This document shows positions 13,533 to 38,465 of a stretch of DNA of 64,000 nucleotides, one piece after another (position 1 is the stretch's first letter; the number at the start of each line of letters is the position of its first letter). The position numbers and the translations under genes are program-made. The notes under the pieces were generated by a model. That model did no database searches, was not told where the DNA came from, and saw only the letters and a list, made by a program, of their open reading frames with translations. Source of the DNA: Acidisoma sp. PAMC 29798 (GTDB taxonomy: Bacteria; Pseudomonadota; Alphaproteobacteria; Acetobacterales; Acetobacteraceae); NCBI RefSeq assembly GCF_030252425.1, contig NZ_CP126994.1, positions 3,405,001-3,469,000 of the forward strand, given 5' to 3'.

Positions 13533-14858
13533 GTGATGGGCATTGAAAATTTTCCCCTGGCCTTGCAGCCGATCATTCAGGAGGGCTTTCTGGAGCGCGA
13601 GTTCCAGCAGGCGCTCCGATCCCGCCTCGGCTATCGCGCCGTCGCGGATCGGGAAGATATTTCCGTCGGCATCGGTGAGACGCTCACAAAGACGCGCGCC
13701 GGCCTCAAGCCGAGCGTGACGACCCCGCTCTCCCCCGCTGCCAACACCAACCTCGATAATGGCCTCACGCCCTCCGGTTGGGGCATCGAGCAATATACCC
13801 TCACGCTCAACTTCTATGCCGCGACCGCCGATCTGAACATGGTGACCAGCCGCGTCGGCATCGCCAACCAGTTCCTGCAAAACGCCTATACCAATGGTGA
13901 GCAGGCGGCGCGCAGCCTGGATGAGCTGGCAAGGAACGCACTGTTCCAGGCGTATTTCGGCGGCAATACCCGTGTAACCGCCACGTTGTCGGCCGCCGGG
14001 CCGACGATCCTGGTCGATGACGTGCGCGGCTTCCAGACCGTCTTTGTCAACGGCGTGCAAGTTCCCGTCTCCTCCGCCAATCCGCTGGCGGTGACCGTGG
14101 GCGCGGATATCTATACGCTGAGCGCGGTGACGACGGACACGGTCAGCCTATCCTCGACGCCGAATGGCGCTTCCGGCAGCCTGATCTTCACCACCAGCGT
14201 CGCGGTGGCTGACGGCACCATCGGCATGACCGTTCAGGCGGCCACCGCAAGCGCCATCCTGCGGCCGGGTGGGCGGACCAATACCGCCCTGCTGCAGCCC
14301 AATGACAGCCTGACGATGGGTAATCTTCTCGATGCCGTCGCGACCTTGCGCAAGAATGCCGTGCCGGAGATCGATGGCGTCTATAATTGCTACCTCGACC
14401 CGGTTTCGTCGCGTCAGCTTTTCGCCGATCCCGACTTCAAGACTCTGTTCACCGGCGCCACATCAGGCAATGCCGTCTTTCATGATGGCATGGTCAATGA
14501 CTTCCTCGGGCTGCGCTTTATTCCCACCACCGAGGCCTTCGTGCAGGCACATCCGACGATCGCCGGCCTCGCCGTGCGTCGCCCGATCATCTGCGGCCAA
14601 GGCGCGCTCATCGAAGGCGATTTCGCCGGCATCGGCGCAGATGATGTGGCACCGAAGGACTCCATCGTGACCATCGTCGATCAGGTGGCCATGGTGACGC
14701 GGGAACCGATCGATCGCTTGCAGCAGATCATCGCCCAAAGCTGGTATTGGATCGGCGGCTTCTGCGCGCCGTCCGATACCACCACAACGCCCTTGACCGT
14801 GCCGACCGCGACCAACGCCGCCTATAAGCGCGCGGTGATGGTCGAGCATGCAGGCTGA
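13533..14858 (+). CDS. Major capsid protein
   Basis: The 441-residue protein begins with a predicted N-terminal arm (IIQEGFLEREFQQALRSRLGYR) and has the YNCYLDPVSSRQLFADPDFKTLF segment often seen in HK97-fold capsids of the N4-gp56 type. Residues about 147-242 form a Thr/Val-rich beta stretch that looks like an inserted surface domain. AGGAT lies at SD distance from the ATG. It would assemble into the icosahedral shell. Family assignment is moderate; the position after portal and scaffold supports the role. Confidence 0.8.
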   Translation: MMGIENFPLALQPIIQEGFLEREFQQALRSRLGYRAVADREDISVGIGETLTKTRAGLKPSVTTPLSPAANTNLDNGLTPSGWGIEQYTLTLNFYAATADLNMVTSRVGIANQFLQNAYTNGEQAARSLDELARNALFQAYFGGNTRVTATLSAAGPTILVDDVRGFQTVFVNGVQVPVSSANPLAVTVGADIYTLSAVTTDTVSLSSTPNGASGSLIFTTSVAVADGTIGMTVQAATASAILRPGGRTNTALLQPNDSLTMGNLLDAVATLRKNAVPEIDGVYNCYLDPVSSRQLFADPDFKTLFTGATSGNAVFHDGMVNDFLGLRFIPTTEAFVQAHPTIAGLAVRRPIICGQGALIEGDFAGIGADDVAPKDSIVTIVDQVAMVTREPIDRLQQIIAQSWYWIGGFCAPSDTTTTPLTVPTATNAAYKRAVMVEHAG

Positions 14859-17038: not shown

Positions 17039-18586
17039 ATGCCCATTGTCCAACAGGGGTCTATCAACACCACCGCCCTTGTGGTGCCCGACCTCTATGT
17101 GCAGATCGTGCCACCGCAAACGCTTCTGCTCAACGGCGTGCCGACCGACATCCTCGGCATCGTCGGCAGTGCAAGCTGGGGCCCTGTCGGGCTGCCGGTG
17201 ACCATCGGCACCATGGCGCAATACGCGGCGGCCTTCGGCCCGGTGATGCCCAGGGCCTTCGATCTCGGCACCCCGATCGCGACTGCGGTGCAGCAGGGCG
17301 CGCAGAACTTCCGCTGTGTCCGGGTGACGGATGGCACCGACACGCCCGCGAGCCTGACGTTGCAGACGGCCATCACTTTGACGGCGCGTTACACCGGCAG
17401 CCTGGGCAGTGGCATTTCCGTTGTGCTGTCCACGGGATCGAAAGCCAATACCTGGCGCATCACGGTCGCACTCTCCGCCTCCACGCCCGAGATTTTTGAC
17501 AATATCGCGGGGACGGGTGCGGCGCTGTGGCAAGCGATTGTCAGTGCCATCAACATCGGCAACGGCGCGTTGCGCGGCGCATCCCAGACCGTGGTCGCGA
17601 GCTATGCCGGCGGTACGGCGGTCCCAGTCGCTGGCAGCTTCACCTTCACCACCGGCACGCCCGGCACAGATGGCGCAAGCGGGGTCACAGCAGCCACACT
17701 GATCGGCAGCGATTCCGTGCCCCGCGCTGGCATGTATGCCTTGCGCGGACAAGGCTGCTCAGTCGCTTTGCTCTCGGACGCGACCGACGTGACGCAGTAT
17801 ACGACGCAGGCGGAGTTCGGACTCTCCGAAGGCATCTACATGATCCTGGCGGGTCCCGCCGGTGACACCACCGCCAACGCTGTTGCGACCAAGGCCTCCG
17901 CCGGGCTGGACAGCTATGCTGCGAAGCTGATGTTCGGCGACTGGCTCTATTGGAATGATCAAACCAACGCGATGCTGCGGCTGGTCTCTCCGCAAGGTTT
18001 CGCGGCCCGTCGATTGGTCAATCTCTCGCCTGAGCAGTCGAGCCTAAACAAGCAGCTCTATAGCATCGCGGGCAGCCAGCGCAGCGGATCGGTCGCCTCC
18101 GGCCAGTCCAGCACCTATGCGACCGCCGATCTGCAGGCTCTGTTTCAAGCCGGCATCGACGTCATCTGCAATCCGCAGCCCGGCGGCACCTATTGGGGGG
18201 TGCGTTGCGGTCACAACTCCTCCTCCAACGCGGCCGTGAATGGCGACAACTACACGCGGCTCACCAATTACATCGCCGCGACCCTCAGTGCGGGGATGGG
18301 CGTCTATGTCGGTTCCGTCATCAACAGCACGCTGTTCCAGAACATCCGGGCCACTCTGCTCTCCTTCCTGCAAGCCATGCTCGGTGAAGGTCTGCTCGGC
18401 AGTACCGACGGCAGCCAACCCTTTGCCGTGATCTGCGACACCACCAATAACCCGCAGACCCGAACGGCGCTCGGCTATGTGCAGGCCGATGTACAGGTGC
18501 AGTTCCAGGGCATCAACGAGAAGTTCATCGTCAATGTCGAAGGTGGCCAGACCGTGCAGGTCAGTCACCAGACCTTGACCAGTTAA
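17039..18586 (+). CDS. Contractile tail sheath protein (primary copy)
   Basis: The 515-residue protein has the sheath hallmarks: an early VGSASWGPVG segment, EGIYMILAGP in the middle, and in the C-terminal core LVNLSPEQSSLNKQL, NGDNYTRLTNYIAATL and VQADVQVQFQGINEKFIVNVEGG. It surrounds the tail tube and contracts on infection. It is followed at once by the tube gene, the standard order, so this is the primary sheath. A close paralogue with a C-terminal fusion lies at 31487-33418. Confidence 0.95.
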   Translation: MPIVQQGSINTTALVVPDLYVQIVPPQTLLLNGVPTDILGIVGSASWGPVGLPVTIGTMAQYAAAFGPVMPRAFDLGTPIATAVQQGAQNFRCVRVTDGTDTPASLTLQTAITLTARYTGSLGSGISVVLSTGSKANTWRITVALSASTPEIFDNIAGTGAALWQAIVSAINIGNGALRGASQTVVASYAGGTAVPVAGSFTFTTGTPGTDGASGVTAATLIGSDSVPRAGMYALRGQGCSVALLSDATDVTQYTTQAEFGLSEGIYMILAGPAGDTTANAVATKASAGLDSYAAKLMFGDWLYWNDQTNAMLRLVSPQGFAARRLVNLSPEQSSLNKQLYSIAGSQRSGSVASGQSSTYATADLQALFQAGIDVICNPQPGGTYWGVRCGHNSSSNAAVNGDNYTRLTNYIAATLSAGMGVYVGSVINSTLFQNIRATLLSFLQAMLGEGLLGSTDGSQPFAVICDTTNNPQTRTALGYVQADVQVQFQGINEKFIVNVEGGQTVQVSHQTLTS

Positions 18587-18598
18587 GGAGCGCGGGTC

Positions 18599-19030
18599 AT
18601 GCCCCTCAATACCTTCTCGATCGGCAAGGACTGCCAGGTCGTCGTGCTCGGTCCTTTCGGTCGCGTCGATCTGGAACATGTCACCGGCTTTGAAAGTCGG
18701 CAGATCACCGCATCGGTTCGTGTCGACCGCATGGACGGTACGATGCTTGGCGCCGAACTGCCTAAAGGCTGGGACGGATCCTTCGATATCGAACGCGGCT
18801 CCTCCGCCGTCGACGATTTGCTTGCGCAAATCGAGCAGACCTATCTCTCCGGTGGCAGTGTCGCGCCGGGCACGCTCTATCAATATGTCGATGAGGTCGA
18901 TGGCTCAACCTCGACTTATCAATACAATAGCGTCGTCTTCAAGCTGACGTCATCGGGTCTGTATAAGGGTGATGCCAGCGTCAAGCAGAAGCTGGAATTC
19001 TACGCGACCAGCCGAAGCCGCGTCTCATGA
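18599..19030 (+). CDS. Tail tube protein
   Basis: The 143-residue protein directly after the sheath has the size and alternating strand pattern of contractile-tail tube proteins (FDIERGSSAVDDLLAQIEQ, YQYNSVVFKLTSSGLYKGDASVKQKLEFYATSR). It would form the inner tube that passes through the sheath. AAGGAG lies upstream of the ATG. Its stop overlaps the chaperone start (ATGA). Only one tube gene is seen although there are two sheath genes. Confidence 0.88.
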   Translation: MPLNTFSIGKDCQVVVLGPFGRVDLEHVTGFESRQITASVRVDRMDGTMLGAELPKGWDGSFDIERGSSAVDDLLAQIEQTYLSGGSVAPGTLYQYVDEVDGSTSTYQYNSVVFKLTSSGLYKGDASVKQKLEFYATSRSRVS

Positions 19031-21373: not shown

Positions 21374-21559
21374 ATGGCGCAAGTGACCGTCGCCGGCGGC
21401 GACCTGTATCACATCGCCGCCGCATTGCTGGGTGACGCTACGCAGTGGATTCGCATTGCGCAGATGAACGGCTTGTCCGATCCCTATCTCTACGGCGTGA
21501 CGATCCTCACGCTGCCAGCGGTCAATCCCACGGCCGGAGGCGGCATTGCCGAGCAGTGA
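21374..21559 (+). CDS. gpX-like LysM-fold tail protein
   Basis: The 61-residue protein has a LysM-like pattern (AGGDLYHIAAALLGDATQWIRIAQMNGLSDP, then a hydrophobic strand near ILTLP). It matches the small P2 tail protein X, which has a LysM fold and joins baseplate and tail tube. A GTG at 21368 is an alternative start. It overlaps the hub gene by 14 bases. Confidence 0.7.
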   Translation: MAQVTVAGGDLYHIAAALLGDATQWIRIAQMNGLSDPYLYGVTILTLPAVNPTAGGGIAEQ

Positions 21560-22631
21560 CCTTGCAACTGCGCGCGGCGTCTTCCTGCGTCTGCTGATCG
21601 ACGGACTGCCGGTCGAAGGCGCGATCGAGGCCGAGGTGACAGCGAGCGACCATCAGGCCGCCGACCATTTCAGGATCACGCTGGCCCTCGGCGTTGACCC
21701 GATCTTCACGGCCGCGACTTTCGCTAGTCTGACCCAGGCGAATGCCGAAATCCTGGTCGGTCTGGCGCCCCCTGGCGCGCCGGCCGCCGCTGCTCTTTGG
21801 CAAAGTCTGATTCTCGGGCCCATCGACGACATCGCCATCGATGTGCCTCAACGCAGCGTGGCGCTGAGCGGGCGGGATCTCAGCGCGCTGTTCATCGACG
21901 CGCTGACGGCGGAGACATTCTCGAACAACACTGCGAGCGAGATTGCGCAGACGCTCGCGGTGCGTCATGGCATGATACCCGCCATTACGCCGACGACGAC
22001 GCCGATCGGTCGCTATTACCAGGCTGGGCAGGACCTCTCCTCCCTCTACCAGTCCAGCCGCACCGTGACGGAATGGGATTTGCTCGTGACGCTCGCCGCG
22101 CGCGAGGGTTTCGACCTCTACGTTCAGAACGAAACCTTGTTTTTCGCGCCTCCACTGGCCGCGACACTGCCTGAAATTTGGCAGTGGGGCGGCGCTGCTT
22201 TGATCGATCTTCGGCTCAATCGCACCCTCGCGTTCGCGCGCGACATCAGCGTGACGGTTCAAAGTTGGAACAGCAAGCAGGCGACGATGATTACACAAAC
22301 TGTACGCGCATCGCATGAGGTGGTGAAAGCCTCCAGCACCGCGACGTCTTCGGCCGCGACCACGACCTATGTGCTGGTGCGGCCCAATCTGACGGCGGCG
22401 CAAGCGCTCACCCTCGCGACCCAGACGCTTTCCGACCTCAGTCGCCATGAGCGCGTGGCCACCGCCACGATGGTCGGAGACCTGACACTCGCACCACGGT
22501 CCGCGATTCTGCTTGCGGGCACGGACACGGCCTTCGATCAGCTCTATATCGTCGATGAAATTACCCGCCACATTTCCACGCGCGACGGCTTCACGCAGAC
22601 CGTGCGCGCCGTCAATCGCCCGTCGATGTAA
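21546..22631 (+). CDS. Baseplate hub protein gpD-like (late control protein D family)
   Basis: The 361-residue protein has the gpD/gp27-like pattern: ALSGRDLSALFIDALTAETFSNNTASEIAQTLA near residue 110, then YYQAGQDLSSLYQSSRTVTEWDLLVTLAAREGFDLYVQNETLFFAP near 170-210. It makes the central hub that carries the spike. The TTG at 21546 was taken as start because no later codon keeps the N-terminal strand region. It is followed by the gpV-like spike gene. Confidence 0.78.
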   Translation: MPSSDLATARGVFLRLLIDGLPVEGAIEAEVTASDHQAADHFRITLALGVDPIFTAATFASLTQANAEILVGLAPPGAPAAAALWQSLILGPIDDIAIDVPQRSVALSGRDLSALFIDALTAETFSNNTASEIAQTLAVRHGMIPAITPTTTPIGRYYQAGQDLSSLYQSSRTVTEWDLLVTLAAREGFDLYVQNETLFFAPPLAATLPEIWQWGGAALIDLRLNRTLAFARDISVTVQSWNSKQATMITQTVRASHEVVKASSTATSSAATTTYVLVRPNLTAAQALTLATQTLSDLSRHERVATATMVGDLTLAPRSAILLAGTDTAFDQLYIVDEITRHISTRDGFTQTVRAVNRPSM

Positions 22632-22640
22632 GCGGAAGCG

Positions 22641-23216
22641 ATGATGATGGAAGGATGGCTCAACGCCATGCGGGCGCAGGCTGCGGTCATGGCCGGGGCC
22701 ATTGGCCAAGTCCGCTGCGGTATCGTCCAAAATGTCGATCCATCGACCTATTGCGCAAAGGTGAGCCTGCAACCGGAAGACGTACTGACCGGCTGGCTGC
22801 CGATCGCGTCCGCCTGGGTCGGCGCCGGCTGGGGGCTCGTCACGCCGCCGACGCCGGGCCAGCAGGTTCTGGTGCTGGCGCAAGAAGGCCATGCCGAACA
22901 CGGCTTGATCATCGGCGGCCTATTTTCCATCGCCGCCAAACCGCCGCAAGCACCCACGGGAGAGCTTTGGATGGTGCATGCCACTGGCAGCTTCCTGAAG
23001 CTACAAAATGACGGCAGCATCGCGGGTCATGCGACTGTCTGGACGCTGACAGGTGATATTCACCTCACGGGAAACCTCGTCGCCAGCGGCGATATTTCTG
23101 ACAAGGGCGGTGCCCACGGTACGCTCGATCATTTCCGCACGATCTATGATGTCCATGTTCATCCGAATGTAGCGAACGGACCGGGCGATACCGGGCTGCC
23201 AATACAACAGGCTTAG
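22641..23216 (+). CDS. Baseplate spike protein gpV-like
   Basis: The 191-residue protein has an OB-fold-like region (GIVQNVDPSTYCAKVSLQPEDVLTGWLPI, then WGLVTPPTPGQQVLVLAQEGH). It is followed by a beta-rich C-terminus ending in HVHPNVANGPGDTGLP. This is the usual build of P2 gpV/Mu gp45-type membrane-piercing spikes. The histidines near the C-terminus (HVH) could bind a metal as in some spike tips, but this is only a guess. Confidence 0.82.
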   Translation: MMMEGWLNAMRAQAAVMAGAIGQVRCGIVQNVDPSTYCAKVSLQPEDVLTGWLPIASAWVGAGWGLVTPPTPGQQVLVLAQEGHAEHGLIIGGLFSIAAKPPQAPTGELWMVHATGSFLKLQNDGSIAGHATVWTLTGDIHLTGNLVASGDISDKGGAHGTLDHFRTIYDVHVHPNVANGPGDTGLPIQQA

Positions 23217-23221
23217 GTCAG

Positions 23222-23587
23222 ATGTCCGATCTCAACCATACATTCGACGGTGATCTCAGCGTGAGTGCCGGCGGAGATCTGGCTTTGGCATCTGGAAGTT
23301 TGCTCGGTCAACAGCGTGTGCTGCGGCGCCTGTTAACCAATCCTGGAGACTATATTTGGCATCTGAGCTATGGTGCGGGCTTGCCCGCCCAAATTGGCAC
23401 ACCCGCGAGCGCCGCCACCATTCGCGGTGTCGTACGCAACCAGATTTTCAACGAGCCACTCGTCGCAGCGGATCCGGCGCCCGTCATCACGGTGCAGACG
23501 ACCGACAACTACGTATCGCTCCAGATCAGCTATAGCGATGCCGTCGCCACCCAAACGCAGACGCTCGCGATAACGCTCACAGCGTGA
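23222..23587 (+). CDS. Baseplate wedge protein (Mu gp46 / gp25-like)
   Basis: The 121-residue protein lies between gpV-like and gpJ-like genes. It has GDLALASGSLLGQQRVLRRLLTNPGDYIWHLSYGAGLP and a conserved-looking IRGVVRNQIFNEP segment, which places it with gp46/gp25-type wedge proteins. It would connect the baseplate periphery to the first sheath ring. Confidence 0.75.
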   Translation: MSDLNHTFDGDLSVSAGGDLALASGSLLGQQRVLRRLLTNPGDYIWHLSYGAGLPAQIGTPASAATIRGVVRNQIFNEPLVAADPAPVITVQTTDNYVSLQISYSDAVATQTQTLAITLTA

Positions 23588-23593
23588 GGCATT

Positions 23594-24718
23594 ATGCAGA
23601 TCTCGCTTCAGAATTTCTCGACGCTCGTCACGTCGATGGCAACGGCGGTGCAAGGCAGCGCCGCGCAATTGGTGAATTTCACCACTGGCTCAGTCTTGAA
23701 TGCCATTATCGAAGCGAATGCCTCCGTCGCACTGTGGCTACAGTGGCTGATCCTGCAGGTGCTGCAATGCACACGCCTCGCCACCAGCAACGGCACGGAT
23801 GTGGATAGCTTCGGCGCTGATTTCGGCATGACGCGATTGGCGGCCGTGGCCGCGCAAGGTGCCGTCACCTTCAGTCGCTTCACCCCGAGCATGGCCGCAC
23901 TGGTGCCGACTGGCGTCATCGTCACGACAAGTGATGGCGCAACACGCTTTGCCGTCTCGACAGACACGACGAATGCCGCCTGGAATACGGTGCAGGGTGG
24001 CTATTTGCTGGGCATCGGCGTTGCAGGCGTCACCGTGCCTGTCTCGGCTTTGGTGGCGGGCAGTGCCGGCAATGTGGTTGCGGGCACAATCGGACTGATC
24101 GCGTCCGCGCTACCCGGTATCGATACCGTGACCAACGCCCTGCCGCTCGCCGGCGGTCTGGATGCCGAGACCGACACGGCCTTTCGTATCCGCTTCCAAA
24201 GCTTCATGGATAGCCGCACGCGGGCGACCGTGCAGGCCGTGGTCTTTGCCGCAACCGGCGTTCAGCAAGGCTTGAACTGCACGGTTCAGGAAAACACCAA
24301 TGGCGGAGGCGGCTTCGTGCCAGGCCAGTTCCTGGTAACAATCGATGATGGCTCGGGGGCGCCACCCGCCGCCGTGTTGACATCTGTCCAGGCCGCGGTG
24401 GATGCCGTACGACCGATCGGCACCATCTTCGCGGTCAGTGCGCCCATACCGGTGCTTGCCAATATCGCGGTCACGCTCGGCCTGGCTACAGGCACGGATA
24501 GCGCCACCGCAATTGCGAGTGTGAACACTGCCATCTCGAGTTTTGTCGAATCTCTGGCGGTGGGTGCCAGCTTGCCATACACGCGCCTCGCCCAACTGGC
24601 CTATGACGCGAGCGCCAGCGTCACCAACGTCACCGGGCTGACGCTGCAAGGGGGCACCAGCGATCTGAGCGCGGGTCCAGGGTCCGTCATCAAGCTCGGC
24701 TCGCTCGCGGTGGGTTGA
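23594..24718 (+). CDS. Baseplate protein J (gpJ / Mu gp47-like)
   Basis: The 374-residue protein has the order of baseplate J: FTTGSVLNAIIEANASVALWLQWL, then a beta-rich middle, LAGGLDAETDTAFRIRFQSFMDSRTRATVQAVVFAATGVQQG near residue 190 and the late VLTSVQAAVDAVRPIGTIF segment. It is a wedge component. It is encoded in the usual gp46-J-I order. Confidence 0.88.
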   Translation: MQISLQNFSTLVTSMATAVQGSAAQLVNFTTGSVLNAIIEANASVALWLQWLILQVLQCTRLATSNGTDVDSFGADFGMTRLAAVAAQGAVTFSRFTPSMAALVPTGVIVTTSDGATRFAVSTDTTNAAWNTVQGGYLLGIGVAGVTVPVSALVAGSAGNVVAGTIGLIASALPGIDTVTNALPLAGGLDAETDTAFRIRFQSFMDSRTRATVQAVVFAATGVQQGLNCTVQENTNGGGGFVPGQFLVTIDDGSGAPPAAVLTSVQAAVDAVRPIGTIFAVSAPIPVLANIAVTLGLATGTDSATAIASVNTAISSFVESLAVGASLPYTRLAQLAYDASASVTNVTGLTLQGGTSDLSAGPGSVIKLGSLAVG

Positions 24719-24728
24719 GGACACATCG

Positions 24729-25403
24729 ATGATCGGCGATCAGAACGACATGATGGCGCGGCTGCGTGCCGTGCTGCCCACCGGCTGGTTTCCCGACGAA
24801 ACCCCGGTCTTGAACGGCGTGCTCAGCGGTCTCGCCGTGAGCTGGGCCTGGCTTTACCGCGTGATTGGCTATGCCATGTCCCAAACCCGGCTAGCGACCG
24901 CGACGGATGGCTGGCTCGATCTGATCGCGCGTGATTTCGGCGGCGCGCGATGGGCACGCGAACCGGCCGAGCTCGATGCCGCCTTTCGCACCCGGGTCGG
25001 TCGCAACCTGCGGCGCCTGCGTGGTACCCGCGCGGCGGTAGTCGGCGCCCTCACGGATCTCACAGGCCGCGTGCCGATTGTCTTCGAACCCGCCTATCCG
25101 CCGGATACCGGTGGCTGGGGCAGCGCGGGCCTGGGCTTTAACAGCCTGGGCGGATGGGGCAGCCTCACCTTGCCCTATCAATGTTTTATCACCGCCTACC
25201 GGCCCACCGGCGGCGGCATCGCCAATACCGGCGGCTATGGCGGTGACGGCACAACCGCAGCGCTCGGCGGCTGGAACGCGGGCGCGTTGCAATGGGGCAA
25301 TCTCGACATGATCGAGGGCCGGGTCACTGACGCGCAGATCTACGCCGGCATCGCGGATGCCATGCCCACGGCGGCCATCGCCTGGACCACCATCTCCAAC
25401 TGA
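24729..25403 (+). CDS. Tail protein I-like (Mu gp48 / P2 gpI)
   Basis: The 224-residue protein has MARLRAVLPTGWFPDETPVLNGVLSGLAVSWAWLY and TDGWLDLIARDFGG, as in gpI-type wedge proteins, followed by FRTRVGRNLRRLRGTRAAVVGAL. A Gly-rich C-terminal part (residues ~125-185) probably meets the fibre. It closes the baseplate block and directly precedes the fibre genes. Confidence 0.78.
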   Translation: MIGDQNDMMARLRAVLPTGWFPDETPVLNGVLSGLAVSWAWLYRVIGYAMSQTRLATATDGWLDLIARDFGGARWAREPAELDAAFRTRVGRNLRRLRGTRAAVVGALTDLTGRVPIVFEPAYPPDTGGWGSAGLGFNSLGGWGSLTLPYQCFITAYRPTGGGIANTGGYGGDGTTAALGGWNAGALQWGNLDMIEGRVTDAQIYAGIADAMPTAAIAWTTISN

Positions 25404-26965: not shown

Positions 26966-27466
26966 ATGTCCACTCCGGCCACCCATTCCTGGGCCCCAAG
27001 TGCCGCGCGTATTCTGACGATCACGGGCTTTACGCCCCGGCCACGCGGTTCGGGCTTCCCGTCGCTCGCATCGGCACTCGGCACCGCGCCCTCCTGGCCC
27101 GCCAAGGACCCGGCCGACGTGCTGGATTACGTCTATGACATCGGCCCGGCGGTTTGGGGAGATGATGGTGACAGCATCGCTTTCCTCGATGTCACGATCA
27201 CGCCGAGTGCGGCCGGCGACCTTGTGCTGTCATCAAGCTCCACCAATGGGCAGCACGCGATTCTGTGGCTCGGCGGCGGCCAGAGCGGCACGATCTATAC
27301 CATCACGCTGATGCTCGGCACGCTGGCGGGTCGCAGCTTCCAACGGTCCGTCTCTCTGCCTGTGCTGTCGCTTTCAAGCGAACCCGCCGCCGGCGCGGAT
27401 CTGGTGACAGATGAGGGCGCGCCCATCACCGACCAGAACGGCAATCCCATCACCATTGACGATTGA
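26966..27466 (+). CDS. Probable fibre-tail adaptor protein
   Basis: The 166-residue protein has WPAKDPADVLDYVYDIGPAVWGDDGDSIAFLDVTITPS and a late GGGQSGTIYTITLMLGTLAGRSFQRSV, a pattern seen in small phage fibre-adaptor proteins. It ends with an acidic repeat-like DEGAPITDQNGNPITIDD tail. It lies between fibre and tailspike. The name is tentative. Confidence 0.55.
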   Translation: MSTPATHSWAPSAARILTITGFTPRPRGSGFPSLASALGTAPSWPAKDPADVLDYVYDIGPAVWGDDGDSIAFLDVTITPSAAGDLVLSSSSTNGQHAILWLGGGQSGTIYTITLMLGTLAGRSFQRSVSLPVLSLSSEPAAGADLVTDEGAPITDQNGNPITIDD

Positions 27467-27473
27467 GGACTCA

Positions 27474-30029
27474 ATGCCGACGATCGACGACCTACCGGCA
27501 GCGACCGCCGCCGCCGATACCGATGCCCTGATGGTGTCACAGACAAACTCAGCCCGGAAAGTCACGCGTGCCCAGCTTCTGGCCGGCCTGCAACCCGCCA
27601 TTGTCGTGCCAGCGGGAGATCTGCTGGGCAATGGTGGCTCCACCAGCGCTGGCCCACTTCCGATTACGGTCGGCAGCAATCTTGTTCTTGCCGGGGGCAC
27701 CCTTTCGGCGACTGCGGCACCGTTCATCATCAGCGCCTTACCGGTCGGCGCGGCACCCGGCTCGGCCGATCTTGTTGCCGTTTCGCAAAGCGGCACGATC
27801 AATGCCGTGTCCTATGCCAGTTTCGCGAATGGTCTTGCAGCCCTGCCCGCCTTCGATACCTCCCCGCTGAAAGCGAAAGCCATCGGTGGCAGCATCAGCC
27901 GTACCCTGGGCGCTCTTTTCAGCGATGTCTTGACGATCGAGGATTTTGGCGCGGTTGGGGACGGCGTGACCGATGACACAGCCGCATTCCTGGCAGCCGT
28001 CGCGGCAGGACGGCCGCTTCGCCTCGGCGCCAAGACCTATGTCATCAACGGCCCCGTCGCCCTCACCAACTCCGCCTTCATCACCATCCTCGGCGTGCCC
28101 GGCCAGACCACCGTGCGTCGCCTGGCCCAAACCAGCGGTGCGACCTGGATCTCCATCACCGCGCCGGTGGTTCATGCCGATGGTGTGGTCTTCGATGCCA
28201 ATATCAGCCTGAGCGGCGCTGTAAACGCGGTCGGCATTGCACCGAGTTGCCTCCGCTCGACCTTCCTGCGCTGCGCCTTCATTAATGCCAAGGGCGGGTC
28301 CGGACTGCTGTATAACCAGTCCGATCCCGTCCAGGCCCGCCATAGTATCGTGGCCTGCGAAGCCTACGGCAATGTCCGCGGCATTTACTGTGCCGCGGCC
28401 GACGGCCTGATCATCAGCGCCTGCCATGTGCACGACAATTCCGTGGCCGGCGTCACCGTCGATTACGTCGATCCAGCCTATGTCATAAAGTCGCGTCTGG
28501 CGGAGATCATCGGCAACGAATGCTGGAACAACCTCGTCGGCATTCAGGTCGGTGACTACACAACCGCCGACGCCGTGCCTGCGACCATCGCCAATACCAC
28601 GTCAGACGCCGTGATCTGCCTGATCGGCAGCAATATCTGCCACGACAACGCCGAATATGGCATCGCCGCACAAGGCTACAACCTGCTTGTTCAGAGCAAT
28701 ATCGTCTACAACAATGGCGGCACGAACCTGAACAACGGCGGCATCCTGGTGAATATGTATTCCAGCGCCGTGATCGGCAATCTTGTTACCAACCACTTGG
28801 GCTTTGGCATCGACGCGGGGGCTGCAAACTTCACGCAGATCTCCGGCAATGTCGTGACCAACTCACGCATCGCCATCAATGCCGGCGGCGCGCAGGAAGC
28901 CCGCGTCATCGGCAATGCCGTCGCCAATGCAAGCACCTATGGCATTTGCATCTATAACAACGAAACCACGGGCGGGGGCGCGCCCATTGGGGTGCCCTCG
29001 CTCGACGTTTCGATCATCGATAATACGATTGATATGCCAATGGGTGGCACCGGCATCGCGCTTCTGGACGGCCCACAAGGCGTTCAGGTCGCGCGAAACA
29101 ATTTCATCACCCCCGCCGCCAATCTCAGCATGTGTCTGATTGCCCTCACAGACTCCGTGCTGATCGAAGGCAACCTTCTCAACGGATCCCCCAGTCTTCA
29201 CCTCTATGACCCAGGAACGACTACGAGCGGCCAGTTCAGCGGCCTCTATTCCTTCAACTACCCCGACATTCTCGACAATGTTTCGATTATGGCCAGTGCC
29301 GCGCCAATCCAGTCGATCAGGTCGGTAAACGCGGCGAACTACGGCCCCTATGTGACGTTTCTCAAACTGACAGCCGGCGGCAGCGGCTATTCGGCGGCAC
29401 CCACCATCACCTTCAGCGGCGGCGGCGGATCAGGCGCGACGGCCACGGCCTATATCACCAACGGCGTGGTGATTGGGTATCGCATGGCCTCCCTGGGTTC
29501 GGGTTATACCTCCGCGCCGACCGCCATCATCAGCGGTGGCGGCGGCAGCGGCGCGGCCGCCACCGCCTTCATCGGCATTCCAGTGCCGCCCAACCGCAAG
29601 CTGCGCATCTTCTGCGGCGTGCCAGTCACTTGGGCCAATGCGGGCAGCAATCCACGGCAACTCACAGGCTCCGGCACGCTCATCTCCACGCCCGCGAATT
29701 CCGATATCGAATGGGTGGGGCTGAACGGGGGCTGGTATGCCAGTCGCTACGAACAATCCGATTACGTTCTTGGCGCGTCGGACGGCAGTGTCACGCTGCG
29801 CAGCATCGCCGGCAATCTGCGGCTGCATCCCGCCGGTAGTGGCGTCGTGCAATGGGCGAATGACAGCCAGGCCACGGGCTGCACGACAACCATCGGCAGC
29901 GGTCTCCCGAATGGTGTGGTGTCCGCACCCGTCGGCTCGGACTACCGCAACCTCTCAGGTGTGGCGGGCAACGTCTACTGGATCAAGCAAAGCGGCACCG
30001 GCAGTAGCGGCTGGGCGGCGATCGCCTGA
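27474..30029 (+). CDS. Tailspike with pectate-lyase-type beta-helix (probable depolymerase)
   Basis: I chose the ATG at 27474, giving 851 residues. Residues 1-150 form a baseplate-binding region (IDDLPAATAAADTDALMV). At ~154 the segment VLTIEDFGAVGDGVTDDTAAF marks the start of a right-handed parallel beta-helix, which runs to about residue 590 with repeated strand-turn units. Residues ~630-700 hold two copies of a Gly-rich GGSGY motif. The C-terminal part is a globular tip. It probably binds and cuts a capsular or O-antigen glycan; active residues cannot be named from sequence. Confidence 0.82.
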   Translation: MPTIDDLPAATAAADTDALMVSQTNSARKVTRAQLLAGLQPAIVVPAGDLLGNGGSTSAGPLPITVGSNLVLAGGTLSATAAPFIISALPVGAAPGSADLVAVSQSGTINAVSYASFANGLAALPAFDTSPLKAKAIGGSISRTLGALFSDVLTIEDFGAVGDGVTDDTAAFLAAVAAGRPLRLGAKTYVINGPVALTNSAFITILGVPGQTTVRRLAQTSGATWISITAPVVHADGVVFDANISLSGAVNAVGIAPSCLRSTFLRCAFINAKGGSGLLYNQSDPVQARHSIVACEAYGNVRGIYCAAADGLIISACHVHDNSVAGVTVDYVDPAYVIKSRLAEIIGNECWNNLVGIQVGDYTTADAVPATIANTTSDAVICLIGSNICHDNAEYGIAAQGYNLLVQSNIVYNNGGTNLNNGGILVNMYSSAVIGNLVTNHLGFGIDAGAANFTQISGNVVTNSRIAINAGGAQEARVIGNAVANASTYGICIYNNETTGGGAPIGVPSLDVSIIDNTIDMPMGGTGIALLDGPQGVQVARNNFITPAANLSMCLIALTDSVLIEGNLLNGSPSLHLYDPGTTTSGQFSGLYSFNYPDILDNVSIMASAAPIQSIRSVNAANYGPYVTFLKLTAGGSGYSAAPTITFSGGGGSGATATAYITNGVVIGYRMASLGSGYTSAPTAIISGGGGSGAAATAFIGIPVPPNRKLRIFCGVPVTWANAGSNPRQLTGSGTLISTPANSDIEWVGLNGGWYASRYEQSDYVLGASDGSVTLRSIAGNLRLHPAGSGVVQWANDSQATGCTTTIGSGLPNGVVSAPVGSDYRNLSGVAGNVYWIKQSGTGSSGWAAIA
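29376..29573 (+). repeat. Two in-frame copies of a GGSGY-type repeat inside the tailspike
   Basis: Copy 1 (29376-29456) and copy 2 (29493-29573) encode GSGYSAAPTITFSGGGGSG and GSGYTSAPTAIISGGGGSG, each followed by A-A/T-A and a hydrophobic strand. The DNA is also similar. It looks like a tandem duplication of a short strand-loop unit. Confidence 0.7.
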
Positions 30030-30058: not shown

Positions 30059-31468
30059 ATGCCGATGATTTCCAACCTGCCCAGCGCGACCGCGGTATTG
30101 GCCACGGATCTGCTGCCGATCGAGCAGCCGAGCGGCACCCATGCCGTGACGGTCGCGGGCCTGACGGCGGGTCTGCAACCAACCATTCTGGCGCCGACCG
30201 GCAGCCTGCTCGGCCGCATCTCGCTCGGCCCCGGAGGCCCGGAGGCGATCACCCTCGGGGCGGGTCTCACACTCACGGCGGGCACGATTTCCGTCTCCGG
30301 CGCCATTGGCCAGGGCCTCCCCGCCCCCGGGGCGGGCAATACGGTCAGCACGATCGCGGCGACGGATCTGGTCGCCGCCTATAGCAGCGGCGGCGATGTC
30401 TGGCTGACGCTCGCCGATCTGCTGAACGGTGAGACACTGGACCAGTTGCAGCCCGCAGCGCCCGCCGCCGACACTGATACGCTGGCGGTCGGCCAGGGTG
30501 GCGCTTCCTTGGTGCAGCAAAGCTTCTCTGCCCTCTGGACCTATCTCGCCACCAAGCTGCCGATCGCCAAGAAGCGCATCGTAGAGCTGACAACGAGCAC
30601 GGTCCTGGACGCGACATCGCATAACGACGCCATTCTGGTCTGCAGCCAACCCCTGACGCTGACGGCCAATTACGCAAATATGGGGCCAGGCTTCGTTTGC
30701 GACGTGATCAATCTATCGACCGGCAGCGTGACCATGGGCAGCGGCATTATCACCGGCACGGGCACGCCGGCGCTCGCATCCCAGGGCGCCGCGCGCCTGC
30801 TCGGTATTAGCTATTCCGGGGGCAGTTTTGCCTTCTGGCCGGGCGCTGCCATGTCCGGCGGCTCATCCTCCGGCAGCACCAGCAGCACGATCACCGTCGC
30901 GGCGCCGGCCACCGGCACCACCGGCACTGCCCTCGGCCTGTCCGGCACGGTGTCGCCTGGGGGCGATAGCGTGACGGTGGTGCTCGGCATTTCCGCAACC
31001 TCGGCGCCGACCACGGGCGCGGTCTCCGCCACGGTTACGACGGGCGCCTGGACTGCGAGCCTGACACCCACCGCCGCCGGCACCTATTTCGCCTGGGCGA
31101 CCGACACGACCCTCGGCACGACTGCGGTGAGCACGGCCATCACCGTGGCGGCAGCGGCCAGTGCGACGACGGTCACCTGGGGGCTGGAGCCTGCCGGCAG
31201 CTATAGCCTCGGCGAGACCGGCATCGGCGCGAATGCCGTCATGGCGCCCGGCACCGCCGCACCCGGCCTGCAATTCGGCTGGTCGACGACCACGACGGTC
31301 GCGCCCACCGCTTGGACCGCCGGCGCTTTGGTCAATACCCAGGGCAATGGCGATACGCTGTGGGGCGCTTATCTCACCGCGCCCGCCGCTGCCGGCACCT
31401 GGTATTGCTGGGCCGAAACGACGGATGCGGGTGCCAGCACCGTCAGCGCCGCAATCACCGTCGCGTAG
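30059..31468 (+). CDS. Modular fibre-like protein with two C-terminal Ig-like domains
   Basis: The 469-residue protein begins with MPMISNLPSATAVLATDLLPIE, which matches the start of the tailspike (DDLPAATAAADTDALMV, then LxAGLQP), so both probably use the same docking module. A Ser/Gly linker near residue 270 leads to two beta-sandwich, Ig-like domains (about 280-365 and 370-469). The second is closely related to the domain fused to the second sheath. No enzyme motif was seen. It probably displays adhesive domains on the tail. Confidence 0.65.
   Translation: MPMISNLPSATAVLATDLLPIEQPSGTHAVTVAGLTAGLQPTILAPTGSLLGRISLGPGGPEAITLGAGLTLTAGTISVSGAIGQGLPAPGAGNTVSTIAATDLVAAYSSGGDVWLTLADLLNGETLDQLQPAAPAADTDTLAVGQGGASLVQQSFSALWTYLATKLPIAKKRIVELTTSTVLDATSHNDAILVCSQPLTLTANYANMGPGFVCDVINLSTGSVTMGSGIITGTGTPALASQGAARLLGISYSGGSFAFWPGAAMSGGSSSGSTSSTITVAAPATGTTGTALGLSGTVSPGGDSVTVVLGISATSAPTTGAVSATVTTGAWTASLTPTAAGTYFAWATDTTLGTTAVSTAITVAAAASATTVTWGLEPAGSYSLGETGIGANAVMAPGTAAPGLQFGWSTTTTVAPTAWTAGALVNTQGNGDTLWGAYLTAPAAAGTWYCWAETTDAGASTVSAAITVA
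31178..31468 (+). repeat. Ig-like domain repeat, copy 1 (in the fibre-like protein)
   Basis: This stretch encodes the last Ig-like domain of the fibre-like gene. It matches 33121-33418 in the fused sheath gene in its order of strands and in shared phrases such as VAPTAWTAG, VNTQG and AYLTAP. The relation is visible both in protein and in DNA, and suggests duplication or recombination between the two genes. Confidence 0.72.
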
Positions 31469-31486: not shown

Positions 31487-33418
31487 ATGATCACGCAACA
31501 AGGCGCCTTGAACACGACGGCGCTCGTCGTGCCGGATCTCTATGTCCAGCTCGTGCCGCCCAATGCCGTGGTGCTCAATGGTGTGCCGAGCAATGTCGTG
31601 GGCGTCGTCGGCTCCGCGAGTTGGGGTCCGGTCGGCGCGCCGGTCATCATCGGCAGCATGACGGAGTATGCGGCCGGTTTCGGGCCGGTGATGGATCGCG
31701 GCCTCGACATGGGCACCCATGTCGCCATTGCCGTGCAGCAGGGCGCGAATGCCTTTCGCTGCCTACGCGTGACGGATGGCACGGATGAGCCGGCAACCGC
31801 GCCTGGCACCGCTGGCTGCATCACCTTCACCGCGCGCCATTCCGGCAGTCTTGGCAATGCGATCACCGTCGCACTCGATGTCGGCAGCATGGCCGGAAGC
31901 TGGGCCGCAACCATCGGCCTGTCCGGCCTGCTACCTGAACGATTCGACAATATTACTGGCACAGGCGACAGTTTTTGGAATGCACTGGCCGCCGCCATCA
32001 ATGCCGGCACCGGCACGCGGTCGGCCTCGGTCTTCGTCACGGCGAGCGCCAGCGGTGGAACGACGGCACCAGTGGCCGCACGCTACGCGCTTGCCGGCGG
32101 ATCGGACGGCGCCACCGGTGTCACTGCCGCGAGCCTCATCGGCACCGATACCGCGCCACGCCTCGGCATGTATGCCCTGCGGGGACAAGGCTGCGCCATT
32201 CTCGATCTTTGCGATTGCACGGATGCGACGCAATGGTCGACGGTAGAAGGCTTCGCCGCTGCAGAAGGGCTTTATGCGATGCTCACGGGCCCATCCGCGG
32301 ATACGCTAACGAATGCCATCGCCACGAAAGCCTTAGCCGAGCTCGACAGTTCTGCCGTGAAACTGCTGTTCGGCGATTGGCTGTGGTGGTGGGACGCCGC
32401 GAATGAAACGCAACGGCTGGTCTCGCCCCAGGCCTTCGCGGCTGGTCGGCTCGCCAATCTCTCGCCCGAGCAGTCGGGCCTCAACAAGCCGCTGTCGGCC
32501 ATCGGCGGCAGCCAGACAATCGGCTCACCGGCATCCGGCCTCATCAATCGCTACAGTGCCGCCGAGCTGGGCGCCTTGTTCGAAGCCGGCATCGACGTCA
32601 TTACCAATCCAGGCGCGGGCGGCCAGCTGATCTGGACGCTGCGCCTCGGTCATAACAGTTCCACCGATGCCAGCATCAATGGCGATAATTATACGCGCCT
32701 GACGAACTACATCGCCGCGACGCTCGCGGCCGGCATGGGCATTTATGTCGGGAAAGTTGTCAATGCCGCCTTGCTGCGCAATATTCGCAGCACACTGCTC
32801 GGCTATTTGTCAGGCCTGCTGAGCCAGGGATTGCTGGGCAGCACGGATGGTACGTTGCCCTTCGCCGTCATATGCGACACCGGTAACAACCCGTTTGGCC
32901 GATTGGCACTTGGCTATGTGCAGGCGGACGTGCAAATCCGCTACCAGGGCATCACGGAGAAATTCCTGGTCAATCTCGATGGCGGCGCGACCGTGCTTGT
33001 TAGCACAACGAGCACCGGTACATCAGACAGCGGCACATCAGGCGGAAGTGGATCGGGCAGCGGCTCTGGCTCAGGCGCCGGTTCTGGCGGAAGCGGCTCA
33101 GGCTCAGGAAGTTCGGAAACGCTCACCTTCCAGATACCGCCGACCGGCACATACACGCCCGGCCAGGCGAGCATCGGCGTCAATGCCACGCTGCATCCTG
33201 GCAGTGCCACGGCCGCGATCCAGTTCGGCTTTTCCACCTCCGCGACGGTCGCACCCACCGCCTGGACGGCCGGTATTTATGTCAACACGCAGGGCGATGG
33301 CGACGCGCTCTACGCGGCCTATCTCACCGCGCCCTCCGGCGCCGGGACCTATTATGGTTGGGTTGCCACGACGGACGGCACGGTGTCCGCAGTCTCCGCC
33401 AGTGTGACGGTGAGCTGA
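31487..33418 (+). CDS. Second tail sheath protein fused to a Gly/Ser linker and Ig-like domain
   Basis: The 643-residue protein is a full-length paralogue of the primary sheath. Shared segments include VGSASWGPVG, LSPEQSGLNK, NGDNYTRLTNYIAATL, LLGSTDG and VQADVQ. The sheath part ends near residue 506. A Gly/Ser linker (about 507-544, GTSGGSGSGSGSGSG-like) follows, then a ~95-residue Ig-like domain. The primary copy lacks this extension. It lies far from the tube gene, among the fibre genes, so it may form a mixed sheath or a specific ring, or may be a display protein. Its stop overlaps the next start (TGATG). Confidence 0.85.
   Translation: MITQQGALNTTALVVPDLYVQLVPPNAVVLNGVPSNVVGVVGSASWGPVGAPVIIGSMTEYAAGFGPVMDRGLDMGTHVAIAVQQGANAFRCLRVTDGTDEPATAPGTAGCITFTARHSGSLGNAITVALDVGSMAGSWAATIGLSGLLPERFDNITGTGDSFWNALAAAINAGTGTRSASVFVTASASGGTTAPVAARYALAGGSDGATGVTAASLIGTDTAPRLGMYALRGQGCAILDLCDCTDATQWSTVEGFAAAEGLYAMLTGPSADTLTNAIATKALAELDSSAVKLLFGDWLWWWDAANETQRLVSPQAFAAGRLANLSPEQSGLNKPLSAIGGSQTIGSPASGLINRYSAAELGALFEAGIDVITNPGAGGQLIWTLRLGHNSSTDASINGDNYTRLTNYIAATLAAGMGIYVGKVVNAALLRNIRSTLLGYLSGLLSQGLLGSTDGTLPFAVICDTGNNPFGRLALGYVQADVQIRYQGITEKFLVNLDGGATVLVSTTSTGTSDSGTSGGSGSGSGSGSGAGSGGSGSGSGSSETLTFQIPPTGTYTPGQASIGVNATLHPGSATAAIQFGFSTSATVAPTAWTAGIYVNTQGDGDALYAAYLTAPSGAGTYYGWVATTDGTVSAVSASVTVS
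33121..33418 (+). repeat. Ig-like domain repeat, copy 2 (fused to the second sheath)
   Basis: This stretch encodes the C-terminal Ig-like domain of the fused sheath and is related to 31178-31468. The primary sheath gene (17039-18586) has no counterpart, so the domain was probably gained from the neighbouring fibre gene. Confidence 0.72.
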
Positions 33419-35511
33419 TGCTCTTCGCGCGTTCCAACAGGCCGCTGTTCACGGCAGCCGGCCGCCCGCTTCTCAGCACGCTCGGCGTGAGCAGCGGGGG
33501 CGGCACCGCGCCCAGCACCGGCAGTTTTTCGGGACCCTATCCCTCTACCATCACCGGCCTATCCGGCTGGTGGGATGCCGGGGCGCTGCTCTCCCCCGGC
33601 GCCGTCGTGACCAGCCTCACCGATGCCTCGGGCCATGGCGCGGCCATGACCGCCTATCACTACTATACTGGCACTGGCGCCACGGCGGCGGCCCTCATCG
33701 CCACGCCGCGCCTCAATGGGCTTCTCGGCGGTGTCGGCGCACCGATACCGCAAGCCTCGACCTATGCGCCGACGCTCGACCCGGACACTGGCTTGCAACT
33801 GGCGAGCCTCGCCTTCGGGCCCGATATGGCCTGGACGCGCATGCTGGTTTGGAGCCGCCCGAACCGTCGCCAGGGCACCTATTACGTCAATGCGAATGAC
33901 ATTTCCCTCATTCGCTCCAACGGGATTTCGCTCGTCACCGTCTCCTCCACCGGCGCGACGCTGACGCTTTTCCCGACCGCCGCCGCCGTCGTGCTCAGCA
34001 GCACCATCACGCGCCGCCACACCCATTGCCTGATCCTGCGCAACACGCCTGGCACCGGCGTCGATGCCTGGCTCGACGGCACGCAGGTCGCGACCGCCGT
34101 CACCAATCCCATGCCCACGGGTGCGACCGGTCCCTGTGTGCTGCTGCATGAAATGGATCTGCAAGGTGCGGCGCAGTGCTGGTTCCATGAAATGGCGAGT
34201 TGGGAACGCGCGCTGTCGAGCACCGACATGACCACGCTGATCGCCTGCGGTGGGCGTTGGACGTTCGGGGCCCGTAAAGGCGCGTCACTGCTCATCATGG
34301 GCCAGTCCAATGCGAGTTACTTCCAGGTCTCGGGCGGCGCGCAGGCCATGGCCGATGGCCTCGCCTGGTATCTCGGTGCCATCGCGGGGAATATCCTCTT
34401 CCAACCCTCCGGCACCTATGCGAGCCCGGCGCGCTATACGCAGATCAATGGCCACCCGATCTCCAATTCCACCGCGCCACTGTTCCCGCCCGGCGCCGGC
34501 GCCGGCACCTTCCTGACCAATCCGGGTGACGGTTCCGATCCCTCGACCTGGGCGCTGGGGCCGGACGGCCTCGCGGTCGAGGCCTATCTCACCGGCAGCG
34601 CGGCCATCCCAACCGCCGAGGACCTGGCGGATATTGCCGCCATCGTCTGGCCCTGGACGGAGCAGGACAGCACGGCGCCGTATAGTCAGAAGGCGCTGTA
34701 TACGGGAACGGTGAGGCGCCTCGCGGCCCTCACGCGGACGATGCTGAGCCGCACGGCGCCCGAACTGCCGCTGCTGCTGTGGAACGCGATTCCTTATGAG
34801 ACCGATGCCGGCGTGCAAATGGTGCGCGAAAGTCTCGCCGACATCGTGGCCGACAGCACGCAGAACGCGGCCCTGTTTGCCGCCCAGACTGCCGACAGCA
34901 TTCCGCTGAGCGCGACCTATAACGCGACAGACGGCACCTGGACCGGCGGCGACCCCCAGCATCGGGACGAGACCGATGAGGCGCGTTTCGGCCATTGCGG
35001 CGCCCATGTCGCGGCGCGTATGGCCCTCGCCGCCGGTTTTGGCGATACACTCTCAGCCATTCCCTCCGGCATGCCGCTGGTGGGGCCGAGCATCGCGCAT
35101 GCCTTCCGCCAGAGCAGCACGCAGATCGTAATCACCATTGTGCATGATCAGGGCACGGACATTGCCGTGCCGCTGCAAGCCGCCAACGGTGCCGGCTGGG
35201 GGGTGATGGATGGCGGATCGGTCGCAGCCCCCGGCACGATCATCACCGCGTTATCCGCCACGCGGATCGATGCCACGCATCTGTTGCTGACGCTGGCAGT
35301 GGCGATCAGCAACATCAGCGCGGATTGCCAAGTCTTCTATCCCTATGGCTCGACGCAGATCGGGCGGGGCGACGCGGTGACGGATAATTTCGCGGACATC
35401 GGCTGGCCTACGGGCTGGAACATGGCGGGCGACCTCGGCTCGGCATGGACCGTTAATATGCCGTTGCAGGCGACGCGTTACGGCATTCCCCTCAGCGACA
35501 GCGCAACCTGA
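33418..35511 (+). CDS. LamG-like plus SASA-type esterase tail protein
   Basis: The 697-residue protein overlaps the second sheath stop by one base. Residues ~45-290 show a LamG/concanavalin-like beta-sandwich (GLSGWWDAGALLSPGAVVTSLTDASGHG). Residues ~292-530 have the signature of sialate-O-acetylesterase (SASA)/SGNH enzymes: LLIMGQSN, with Ser297 as nucleophile, and a late HRDETDEARFGHCGAH segment with the likely catalytic His (515 or 526). The last ~160 residues are a beta-rich tip. It probably removes acetyl groups from a surface glycan. Confidence 0.75.
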   Translation: MLFARSNRPLFTAAGRPLLSTLGVSSGGGTAPSTGSFSGPYPSTITGLSGWWDAGALLSPGAVVTSLTDASGHGAAMTAYHYYTGTGATAAALIATPRLNGLLGGVGAPIPQASTYAPTLDPDTGLQLASLAFGPDMAWTRMLVWSRPNRRQGTYYVNANDISLIRSNGISLVTVSSTGATLTLFPTAAAVVLSSTITRRHTHCLILRNTPGTGVDAWLDGTQVATAVTNPMPTGATGPCVLLHEMDLQGAAQCWFHEMASWERALSSTDMTTLIACGGRWTFGARKGASLLIMGQSNASYFQVSGGAQAMADGLAWYLGAIAGNILFQPSGTYASPARYTQINGHPISNSTAPLFPPGAGAGTFLTNPGDGSDPSTWALGPDGLAVEAYLTGSAAIPTAEDLADIAAIVWPWTEQDSTAPYSQKALYTGTVRRLAALTRTMLSRTAPELPLLLWNAIPYETDAGVQMVRESLADIVADSTQNAALFAAQTADSIPLSATYNATDGTWTGGDPQHRDETDEARFGHCGAHVAARMALAAGFGDTLSAIPSGMPLVGPSIAHAFRQSSTQIVITIVHDQGTDIAVPLQAANGAGWGVMDGGSVAAPGTIITALSATRIDATHLLLTLAVAISNISADCQVFYPYGSTQIGRGDAVTDNFADIGWPTGWNMAGDLGSAWTVNMPLQATRYGIPLSDSAT

Positions 35512-37429: not shown

Positions 37430-37484
37430 AGCGTGTCTCCTCATGTGATGAACGGAGAATGACGCCCGGCCCGACCAAACGAAA

Positions 37485-37512: not shown

Positions 37513-37519
37513 TTCCTGT

Positions 37520-38438: not shown

Positions 38439-38465
38439 AGCCCCGCATTCCGCGGGGCTTTTTTT
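38439..38465 (+). terminator. Rho-independent terminator after the LysR gene
   Basis: AGCCCCGC and GCGGGGCT form an 8-base stem around ATTCC, followed by seven T residues. Confidence 0.9.

What the first reader, a model, noticed from the sequence alone, without database searches (positions are those of the whole stretch)
31487..33418. Second tail sheath gene fused to a linker and Ig-like domain
Directly seen: a full-length paralogue of the primary sheath (17039-18586) lies among the fibre genes. It has a Gly/Ser linker (about residues 507-544) and an extra C-terminal Ig-like domain that the primary sheath lacks. Known: contractile tails normally use one sheath gene next to the tube gene, though contractile injection systems can use several sheath paralogues; Ig-like domains on phage structural proteins are usually surface-exposed and adhesive. 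Inference: the particle may build a mixed sheath or a special ring that displays an adhesive domain along the tail. I know of no described phage with this layout, but I could not search.
Basis: partly seen in the sequence, partly recalled or inferred. Interest (0 to 1): 0.88.

Follow-up and report, generated by a model that had tools for sequence, protein, structure and literature searches.

The report
Second tail sheath carrying adhesin-like domain
A phage-like particle encoded in these bacteria has kept a second, specialised copy of its tail-sheath protein with a flexible tether and an antibody-like domain related to the one on the neighbouring tail fibre, which suggests that the outside of the contractile tail itself is used to stick to something.

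Summary
ORF 31487-33418 is a full-length sheath paralogue (62% identical to sheath 17039-18586 over 509 columns) followed by a Gly/Ser tether and a ~99-aa beta-sandwich domain (pLDDT 97). The design recurs in eight genomes or contigs: all five genomes of the genus held (truncated in one, intact in a near-identical relative) and three metagenomic contigs. Sheath body and domain are both under purifying selection; tether length varies, and there are one to three C-terminal domains.

The same domain ends the adjacent fibre gene (30059-31468). In 12 of 12 inspected loci from seven other genera, sheath 2 is absent and that fibre gene abuts or overlaps the next gene. So sheath 2 looks like a lineage-specific addition carrying a fibre-tip module. 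It keeps most conserved sheath residues but has 32 clade-fixed residue differences, so it looks specialised rather than a spare copy.

Correction: this is probably not an ordinary phage. No tyrosine or serine recombinase was found in the window; the cluster is usually single copy and follows host genera, as a domesticated, possibly gene-transfer-agent-like, element would. Two-sheath tails are known (PaBG, Afp). My ten literature searches showed no sheath paralogue with a tethered Ig-like domain. Incorporation into particles and surface exposure are untested.

The parts
31487..33004 (+). Sheath 2 body, residues 1-506, including the conserved C-terminal strand region
   Evidence: 62% identical to sheath 1; PHROG 23 E 2.6e-47; alignment A1; 207 of 239 columns conserved in 40 sheath-1 rows are retained
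33005..33118 (+). Gly/Ser tether, residues ~507-544; roughly 25 to 60 residues in relatives
   Evidence: Sequence and alignment; pLDDT below 50 over residues 486-541
33119..33415 (+). C-terminal Ig-like beta-sandwich domain, residues ~545-643
   Evidence: HMMER domain scan; AlphaFold2 mean pLDDT 97, eight strands; dN/dS 0.09-0.25
17039..18586 (+). Sheath 1, primary tail sheath, directly before the tube gene
   Evidence: PHROG 23 E 7.6e-43; 83% identical in G053, G179 and G200
18599..19030 (+). Putative tail tube gene (by position after sheath 1); no second copy seen in the cluster
   Evidence: PHROG 12993, function unknown; conserved next to sheath 1; the name 'tube' is inference
30059..31468 (+). 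Fibre-like gene; N-terminal stretch resembles that of the 27411 product by eye; residues 276-363 and 370-468 are two domains of the same Ig-like family
   Evidence: Sequences; HMMER scan; Ig domain 55% identical to that of sheath 2
27411..30029 (+). Beta-helix tail-spike-like protein
   Evidence: Pfam Beta_helix E 7.9e-12
33418..35511 (+). Conserved gene directly after sheath 2, start codon overlapping the sheath-2 stop; unknown function
   Evidence: TGATG overlap; conserved in relatives; no Pfam, PHROG or NCBIfam match
10306..11664 (+). Terminase large subunit
   Evidence: PHROG 38 E 9.5e-93; open in the four genomes compared
13533..14858 (+). Major capsid protein
   Evidence: PHROG 1357 E 1.8e-38; 86-87% identical in G053, G179 and G200
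21546..25403 (+). Baseplate and hub genes
   Evidence: PHROG 52, 6142 and 6

Best explanation
31487-33418 encodes a specialised second tail-sheath subunit of a contractile, capsid-bearing, phage-derived particle. SHOWN: a sheath copy became joined, through a disordered Gly/Ser tether, to the terminal Ig-like module of the adjacent fibre family, and sat between the fibre gene and gene 33418-35511 in the ancestor of one Acetobacteraceae genus. It has been kept intact by selection since, alongside sheath 1. INFERRED: the subunit assembles into the sheath through the normal sheath fold, either at a dedicated ring (slightly favoured) or mixed with sheath 1. The tether lets the domain reach the outside of the tail, where six or more copies act as lateral, low-affinity adhesins for a surface glycan or other surface structure, adding to the fibres at the baseplate. 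The particle is probably produced by a domesticated, vertically inherited element rather than by a free phage.
For: Sheath family and fold. Intact in 8 genomes or contigs; all five genus genomes have a match. Purifying selection on body and domain. Each of six sheath-2 rows keeps 203-209 of 239 columns that are at least 95% conserved in 40 sheath-1 rows, 185 in all six. Tether length varies while domain and body are conserved, as for a spacer. Sheath-2 and same-genus fibre domains form one group against fibres of other genera (95/95). In 12 of 12 loci from seven other genera the fibre gene abuts or overlaps gene 33418's homologue with no sheath 2 between. Sheath 2 is one clade (100/100) with 36 clade-fixed columns, 32 of them residues, against 2-5 in three sheath-1 clades and 17 in the genus sheath-1 clade. 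Vertical element: shared left flank, shared right flank in three genomes, element dS 0.54-0.85 against host 0.30-0.87 for G179-G200, 9 of 10 genera monophyletic, TerL single in 77 of 79 genomes.
Against: No proof of expression, incorporation, exposure or binding. Sheath 2 keeps fewer conserved sheath columns (85-87%) than sheath-1 rows do of each other (95-100%), so co-assembly could be impaired; a distant sheath, L041, keeps 68%. The full-length model is weak (mean pLDDT 67, pTM 0.50; Foldseek query TM at most about 0.42). The Ig-like call rests on a predicted fold: one PDB match at E below 0.001, TM about 0.5, and no Pfam family above its cut-off. Sheath C-termini are, from recall, on the inner side of the sheath, so the tether would have to thread outwards. 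G130 has lost most of the element, sheath 1 included, so it is dispensable there.
Confidence: 0.6

Rival explanations
1. Sheath 2 forms one dedicated ring (baseplate- or neck-proximal, as different sheath paralogues do in Afp-like systems) and the domain makes an internal structural contact instead of displaying an adhesin.
For: 32 clade-fixed residue changes, mostly after residue 238 in the conserved part of the protein; multi-sheath contractile systems exist (passages).
Against: The domain belongs to a fibre-tip family that is repeated one to three times, and the tether is long, variable and Gly/Ser-rich, unlike a fixed structural contact.
Confidence: 0.2
2. Sheath 2 is not a virion sheath: it is a decoy, a free polysheath or a cell-surface tube, or an expendable duplicate on its way out.
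For: It lies away from the sheath-tube pair and has a long stem branch (0.38). Sheath proteins can self-assemble alone (FV3 gp053, passages of PMC6357053).
Against: dN/dS 0.11-0.20 and no internal stops in seven sequences; a fixed position in the structural operon, with its stop overlapping the next start.
Confidence: 0.15
3. The cluster is an ordinary temperate phage, and the shared locus reflects one favoured integration site.
For: Terminase, portal and capsid are present. Relatives occur in IMG/VR viral contigs, and a sheath 50% identical occurs in Komagataeibacter phages phiKX1 and phiKX2.
Against: No tyrosine (PF00589) or serine (PF00239) recombinase match in the window. Same gene order in W, G053, G179 and G200. 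Element dS close to host dS, sheath-1 tree following genera, single copy in 77 of 79 genomes. DDE transposases were not specifically searched.
Confidence: 0.25

Closest known systems
Two-component tail sheath of jumbo phage PaBG (passages of PMC7412058 seen; the primary 2018 paper seen only in a reference list)
   Same: Two homologous full-length sheath proteins in one genome, from gene duplication; both listed among virion proteins in PaBG
   Different: The PaBG proteins are 38% identical and of similar size (58.5 and 57.9 kDa), with no tethered extra domain mentioned in the passages seen; a lytic jumbo phage
Afp and other contractile injection systems with several sheath proteins (passage of PMC12961389; Bacteroidales BIS with two sheaths, passage of PMC7394362)
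   Same: More than one sheath paralogue in one contractile machine
   Different: Those are headless; no Ig-like C-terminal display domain mentioned in the passages seen
'Hairy' myoviruses CBB, phAPEC6 and Y3 (passages of PMC5259590, PMC7247149 and PMC13282480)
   Same: Adhesion-like appendages along the side of a contractile sheath
   Different: There ~119-nm fibres (CBB); the CBB authors could not pinpoint the genes. Here the predicted appendage is a small domain on a sheath subunit
Ig-like domains on phage structural proteins (Fraser et al. 2006, seen only as a citation)
   Same: An Ig-like domain appended to a virion structural protein
   Different: Here on a separate sheath paralogue through a long tether, and of a family without a Pfam match above cut-off
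Alphaproteobacterial gene transfer agents (passages of PMC8987985)
   Same: Defective, vertically inherited phage structural clusters
   Different: This one has a contractile sheath; packaging of host DNA is untested. RcGTA being siphovirus-like is recalled

Membership tests
Phage tail sheath (PHROG 23) | Sheath sequence profile over the full body | tested here: met
   E 2.6e-47, residues 2-515; no Pfam sheath model matched sheath 2 at E up to 1
Phage tail sheath (PHROG 23) | Sheath fold | tested here: inconclusive
   Best PDB matches are contractile tail and sheath entries, E down to 3.5e-18, but query TM only about 0.24-0.42 on a model with pLDDT 67
Phage tail sheath (PHROG 23) | Assembles into hexameric rings and contracts | not testable with these tools
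   Only single chains could be predicted
Two-component sheath (PaBG type) | Two homologous sheath genes in one element | tested here: met
   Window; also G053, G179, G200 and L111/L103
Two-component sheath (PaBG type) | Both proteins present in particles | not testable with these tools
   Needs proteomics
Ig-like domain proteins | Ig-like beta-sandwich fold | tested here: inconclusive
   Confident eight-strand model, but Foldseek matches weak (best E 8.9e-4, TM about 0.5)
Ig-like domain proteins | Match to a curated Ig-like family | tested here: not met
   22 members scanned, best E 0.047 (Big_1, one member); none for the window domain
Gene transfer agent | Structural genes without own integration genes, vertically inherited | tested here: met
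   DDE transposases and replication genes not specifically searched genome-wide
Gene transfer agent | Packages host DNA and transfers it | not testable with these tools
   Needs sequencing of encapsidated DNA

The most novel reading that the evidence does not exclude
The element is a contractile-tailed gene-transfer-agent-like particle widespread in Acetobacteraceae. One genus has evolved a decorated sheath, in which a dedicated sheath paralogue carries fibre-tip Ig-like modules on flexible tethers so that the tail shaft itself helps bind recipient cells or their matrix.
Probability: 0.25. Interest if true: 0.85.

Novelty: new variant of a known kind. Interest (0 to 1): 0.62.

Why it matters
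If true, it gives a simple genetic route to lateral adhesins on contractile tails: copy the sheath and add a fibre-tip module. For the 'hairy' tails of phage CBB the responsible genes could not be pinpointed. It would also be a natural example of stable cargo display on a contractile sheath, and it points to a widespread, vertically inherited contractile element in Acetobacteraceae whose function is open.

Tried and rejected
Chance ORF or assembly artefact: rejected, since seven other genomes or contigs carry the intact design. Recent decaying duplicate: rejected on dN/dS and absence of stops. Simple duplication of the genus's own sheath 1: not settled; sheath 2 is not its sister in the tree, but holding both as one clade is not rejected (p-AU 0.087), nor is holding all other non-outgroup sheaths as one clade (p 0.13). 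In the first tree the long-branch row L082 joined sheath 2 (98/96); L082 and L081 were dropped. Splitting of an ancestral fibre gene as the source of the fusion: not supported, because L077's fibre has the same length and layout as the window's (472 aa, 44% over 469). Sequence search of the Ig domain against PDB: nothing at E up to 1. A hexameric ring model: not possible, only single chains can be predicted. VIA-align structure comparison: library absent. Literature: ten searches gave no sheath-Ig fusion and no contractile gene transfer agent; only open-licence PMC papers are held, and I saw listings, abstract starts and passages, no whole papers.

Full report
What is there. The ORF at 31487-33418 encodes 643 residues. 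Residues 2-506 align to the primary sheath (17039-18586) with 314 of 509 identities, and both proteins match PHROG 23 tail sheath. A Gly/Ser stretch, about residues 507-544, follows the conserved end of the sheath, then a ~99-residue domain. The full-length AlphaFold2 model is weak (pLDDT 67, pTM 0.50) but shows a disordered stretch at 486-541 and a confident last domain. That domain alone is modelled as an eight-strand beta sandwich at mean pLDDT 97. Its PDB matches by fold are weak (best E 8.9e-4, sulfite dehydrogenase, then shark IgNAR, intimin and others; TM about 0.5). No Pfam family reaches its cut-off for any of 22 members scanned. 'Ig-like' is therefore a statement about predicted fold.

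Relatives. In the host genus, 5 of 5 genomes held have a match. Genome G130 keeps only a fusion of the first ~197 capsid residues to the end of sheath 2. Its shared stretches are 99.8-99.9% identical to L111 and L103, two overlapping pieces of one contig that hold both sheath genes, so G130 lacks about 18.8 kb that its close relative has, with an 8-base overlap at the junction. Among 85 full-length sheath ORFs in the loci fetched from viral and genome contigs, 80 are 500-539 aa without the domain and 5 are 645-818 aa with it.

Origin. The Ig-like domain also ends the fibre gene just upstream (30059-31468), 55% identical. A HMMER scan (jackhmmer, or phmmer if that was missing from the machine) finds one such domain in seven of the sheath-2 proteins and three in L103 and in the G130 fusion. 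In a tree of last domains, those of sheath 2 and of same-genus fibres form one group against fibres of other genera (95/95). The nine sheath-2 domains fall together but with low support (51/32); seven of them are well supported (98/95). In 12 of 12 loci from seven other genera that hold the fibre gene with this domain, the fibre gene abuts or overlaps the homologue of gene 33418-35511, with no sheath between them. Sheath 2 thus appears inserted at this point in one lineage. Sheath 2 is one clade (7 rows, 100/100) on a stem of 0.38 changes per column. Whether it came from the genus's own sheath 1 or from another element is unresolved (p-AU 0.087).

Selection and specialisation. dN/dS for the sheath-2 body is 0.113-0.204 and for the domain 0.089-0.254 over 21 pairs each, against 0.068-0.117 for sheath 1 over 6 pairs (dS is often near or above 1, so treat these as rough). 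Sheath-2 rows keep 203-209 of 239 columns that are conserved in 40 sheath-1 rows; sheath-1 rows left out one at a time keep 95-100%; two outlying sheaths keep 219 (L040) and 163 (L041). At 36 columns the seven sheath-2 rows share a state that is rare in other sheaths; 32 are residues, and the other four are gap columns at the ends, where the rows had been trimmed to BLAST hits. Clades of sheath 1 show 5, 17, 2 and 2 (the 17 is the genus's own sheath 1, four rows). I read this as a specialised subunit; it could also reflect age or relaxed constraint on the stem.

Element. The cluster holds terminase, portal, capsid, sheath, baseplate and fibre genes. No tyrosine or serine recombinase match lies in the window (18 and 7 matches elsewhere in the genome). 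The left flank (transporter and aminotransferase genes) is shared with G179, G200 and G130, and gene 4571-6592 also with G053. The right flank is shared among G179, G200 and G053 but differs in the window, where mreBCD follows. Between G179 and G200, element genes have dS 0.54-0.85; host genes have 0.53 (argS), 0.62 and 0.30, and the flank gene 4571-6592 has 0.87. Of ten genera with two or more sheath-1 rows, nine are single clades; g99 is not. Those rows came mostly from the best hits and so are a selected set. A TerL match at E up to 1e-60 occurs in 79 of 200 family genomes, 47 of 102 genera, once in 77 of the 79. Together these favour a domesticated, vertically inherited element. Against it: relatives occur in viral contigs and in Komagataeibacter phages (sheath 50% identical); the portal gene is split in the G179 assembly, and gene 33418's homologue is split in G153. 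TerL motifs looking intact by eye is recalled knowledge, not a test.

Mechanism. Most likely the second sheath subunit joins the tail, at a dedicated ring or mixed in, and its tether lets the fibre-type domain project outside as a lateral adhesin. Shown: fusion, conservation, selection, kinship of the domain with the fibre. Inferred: assembly, exposure, adhesion. The tether matters because sheath C-termini lie, from recall, on the inner side.

Known systems. Two sheath proteins, both among virion proteins, are described for phage PaBG (passages of PMC7412058), three for Afp (passage of PMC12961389) and two for one BIS architecture (passage of PMC7394362). Tails with lateral hairs are described (passages); for CBB the authors could not pinpoint the genes. 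I found no described sheath paralogue with a tethered Ig-like domain, nor a contractile gene transfer agent, in ten searches of open-licence papers.

Noticed in passing
G130 (L064:14302-16146) compared with L111 and L103: About 18.8 kb is missing, joining the first ~197 capsid residues in frame to the end of sheath 2 and three Ig-like domains, with an 8-base overlap at the junction; the 99.8-99.9% identical relative is intact. Could be a real deletion or an assembly error.
   Followed up: partly
window 7536-38883 (approximate limits): The whole head-tail cluster appears vertically inherited and usually single copy in Acetobacteraceae: TerL match in 79 of 200 family genomes, 47 of 102 genera. 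A candidate contractile gene-transfer-agent-like element.
   Followed up: partly
window 8789-10099: A sulfotransferase-family gene (Pfam Sulfotransfer_3, E 1.7e-44) sits between a DUF6362 gene and the terminase large subunit, and is conserved at 60-70% identity in G053, G130, G179 and G200.
   Followed up: no
L057:15210-16004 (G179) and the matching gap in L060 (G200): A 264-aa minus-strand ORF that looks like a metallophosphoesterase by eye lies between the fibre gene and sheath 2 in these two genomes only; sheath 2 remains intact.
   Followed up: no
L040:6049-12303: In this metagenomic contig, fibre-like genes with the Ig-like domain and a g33358-like gene lie directly upstream of the sheath (cut by the contig end), a different gene order.
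   Followed up: no
window 36470-38416: An epimerase-like gene on the minus strand and a LysR regulator separate the conserved gene at 38464-38883 from the rest of the cluster.
   Followed up: no
G200:C5:183157-184692 (L051, L066): G200 carries another, more distant contractile cluster (sheath 46% identical to sheath 2), without a second sheath in the stretch fetched.
   Followed up: no
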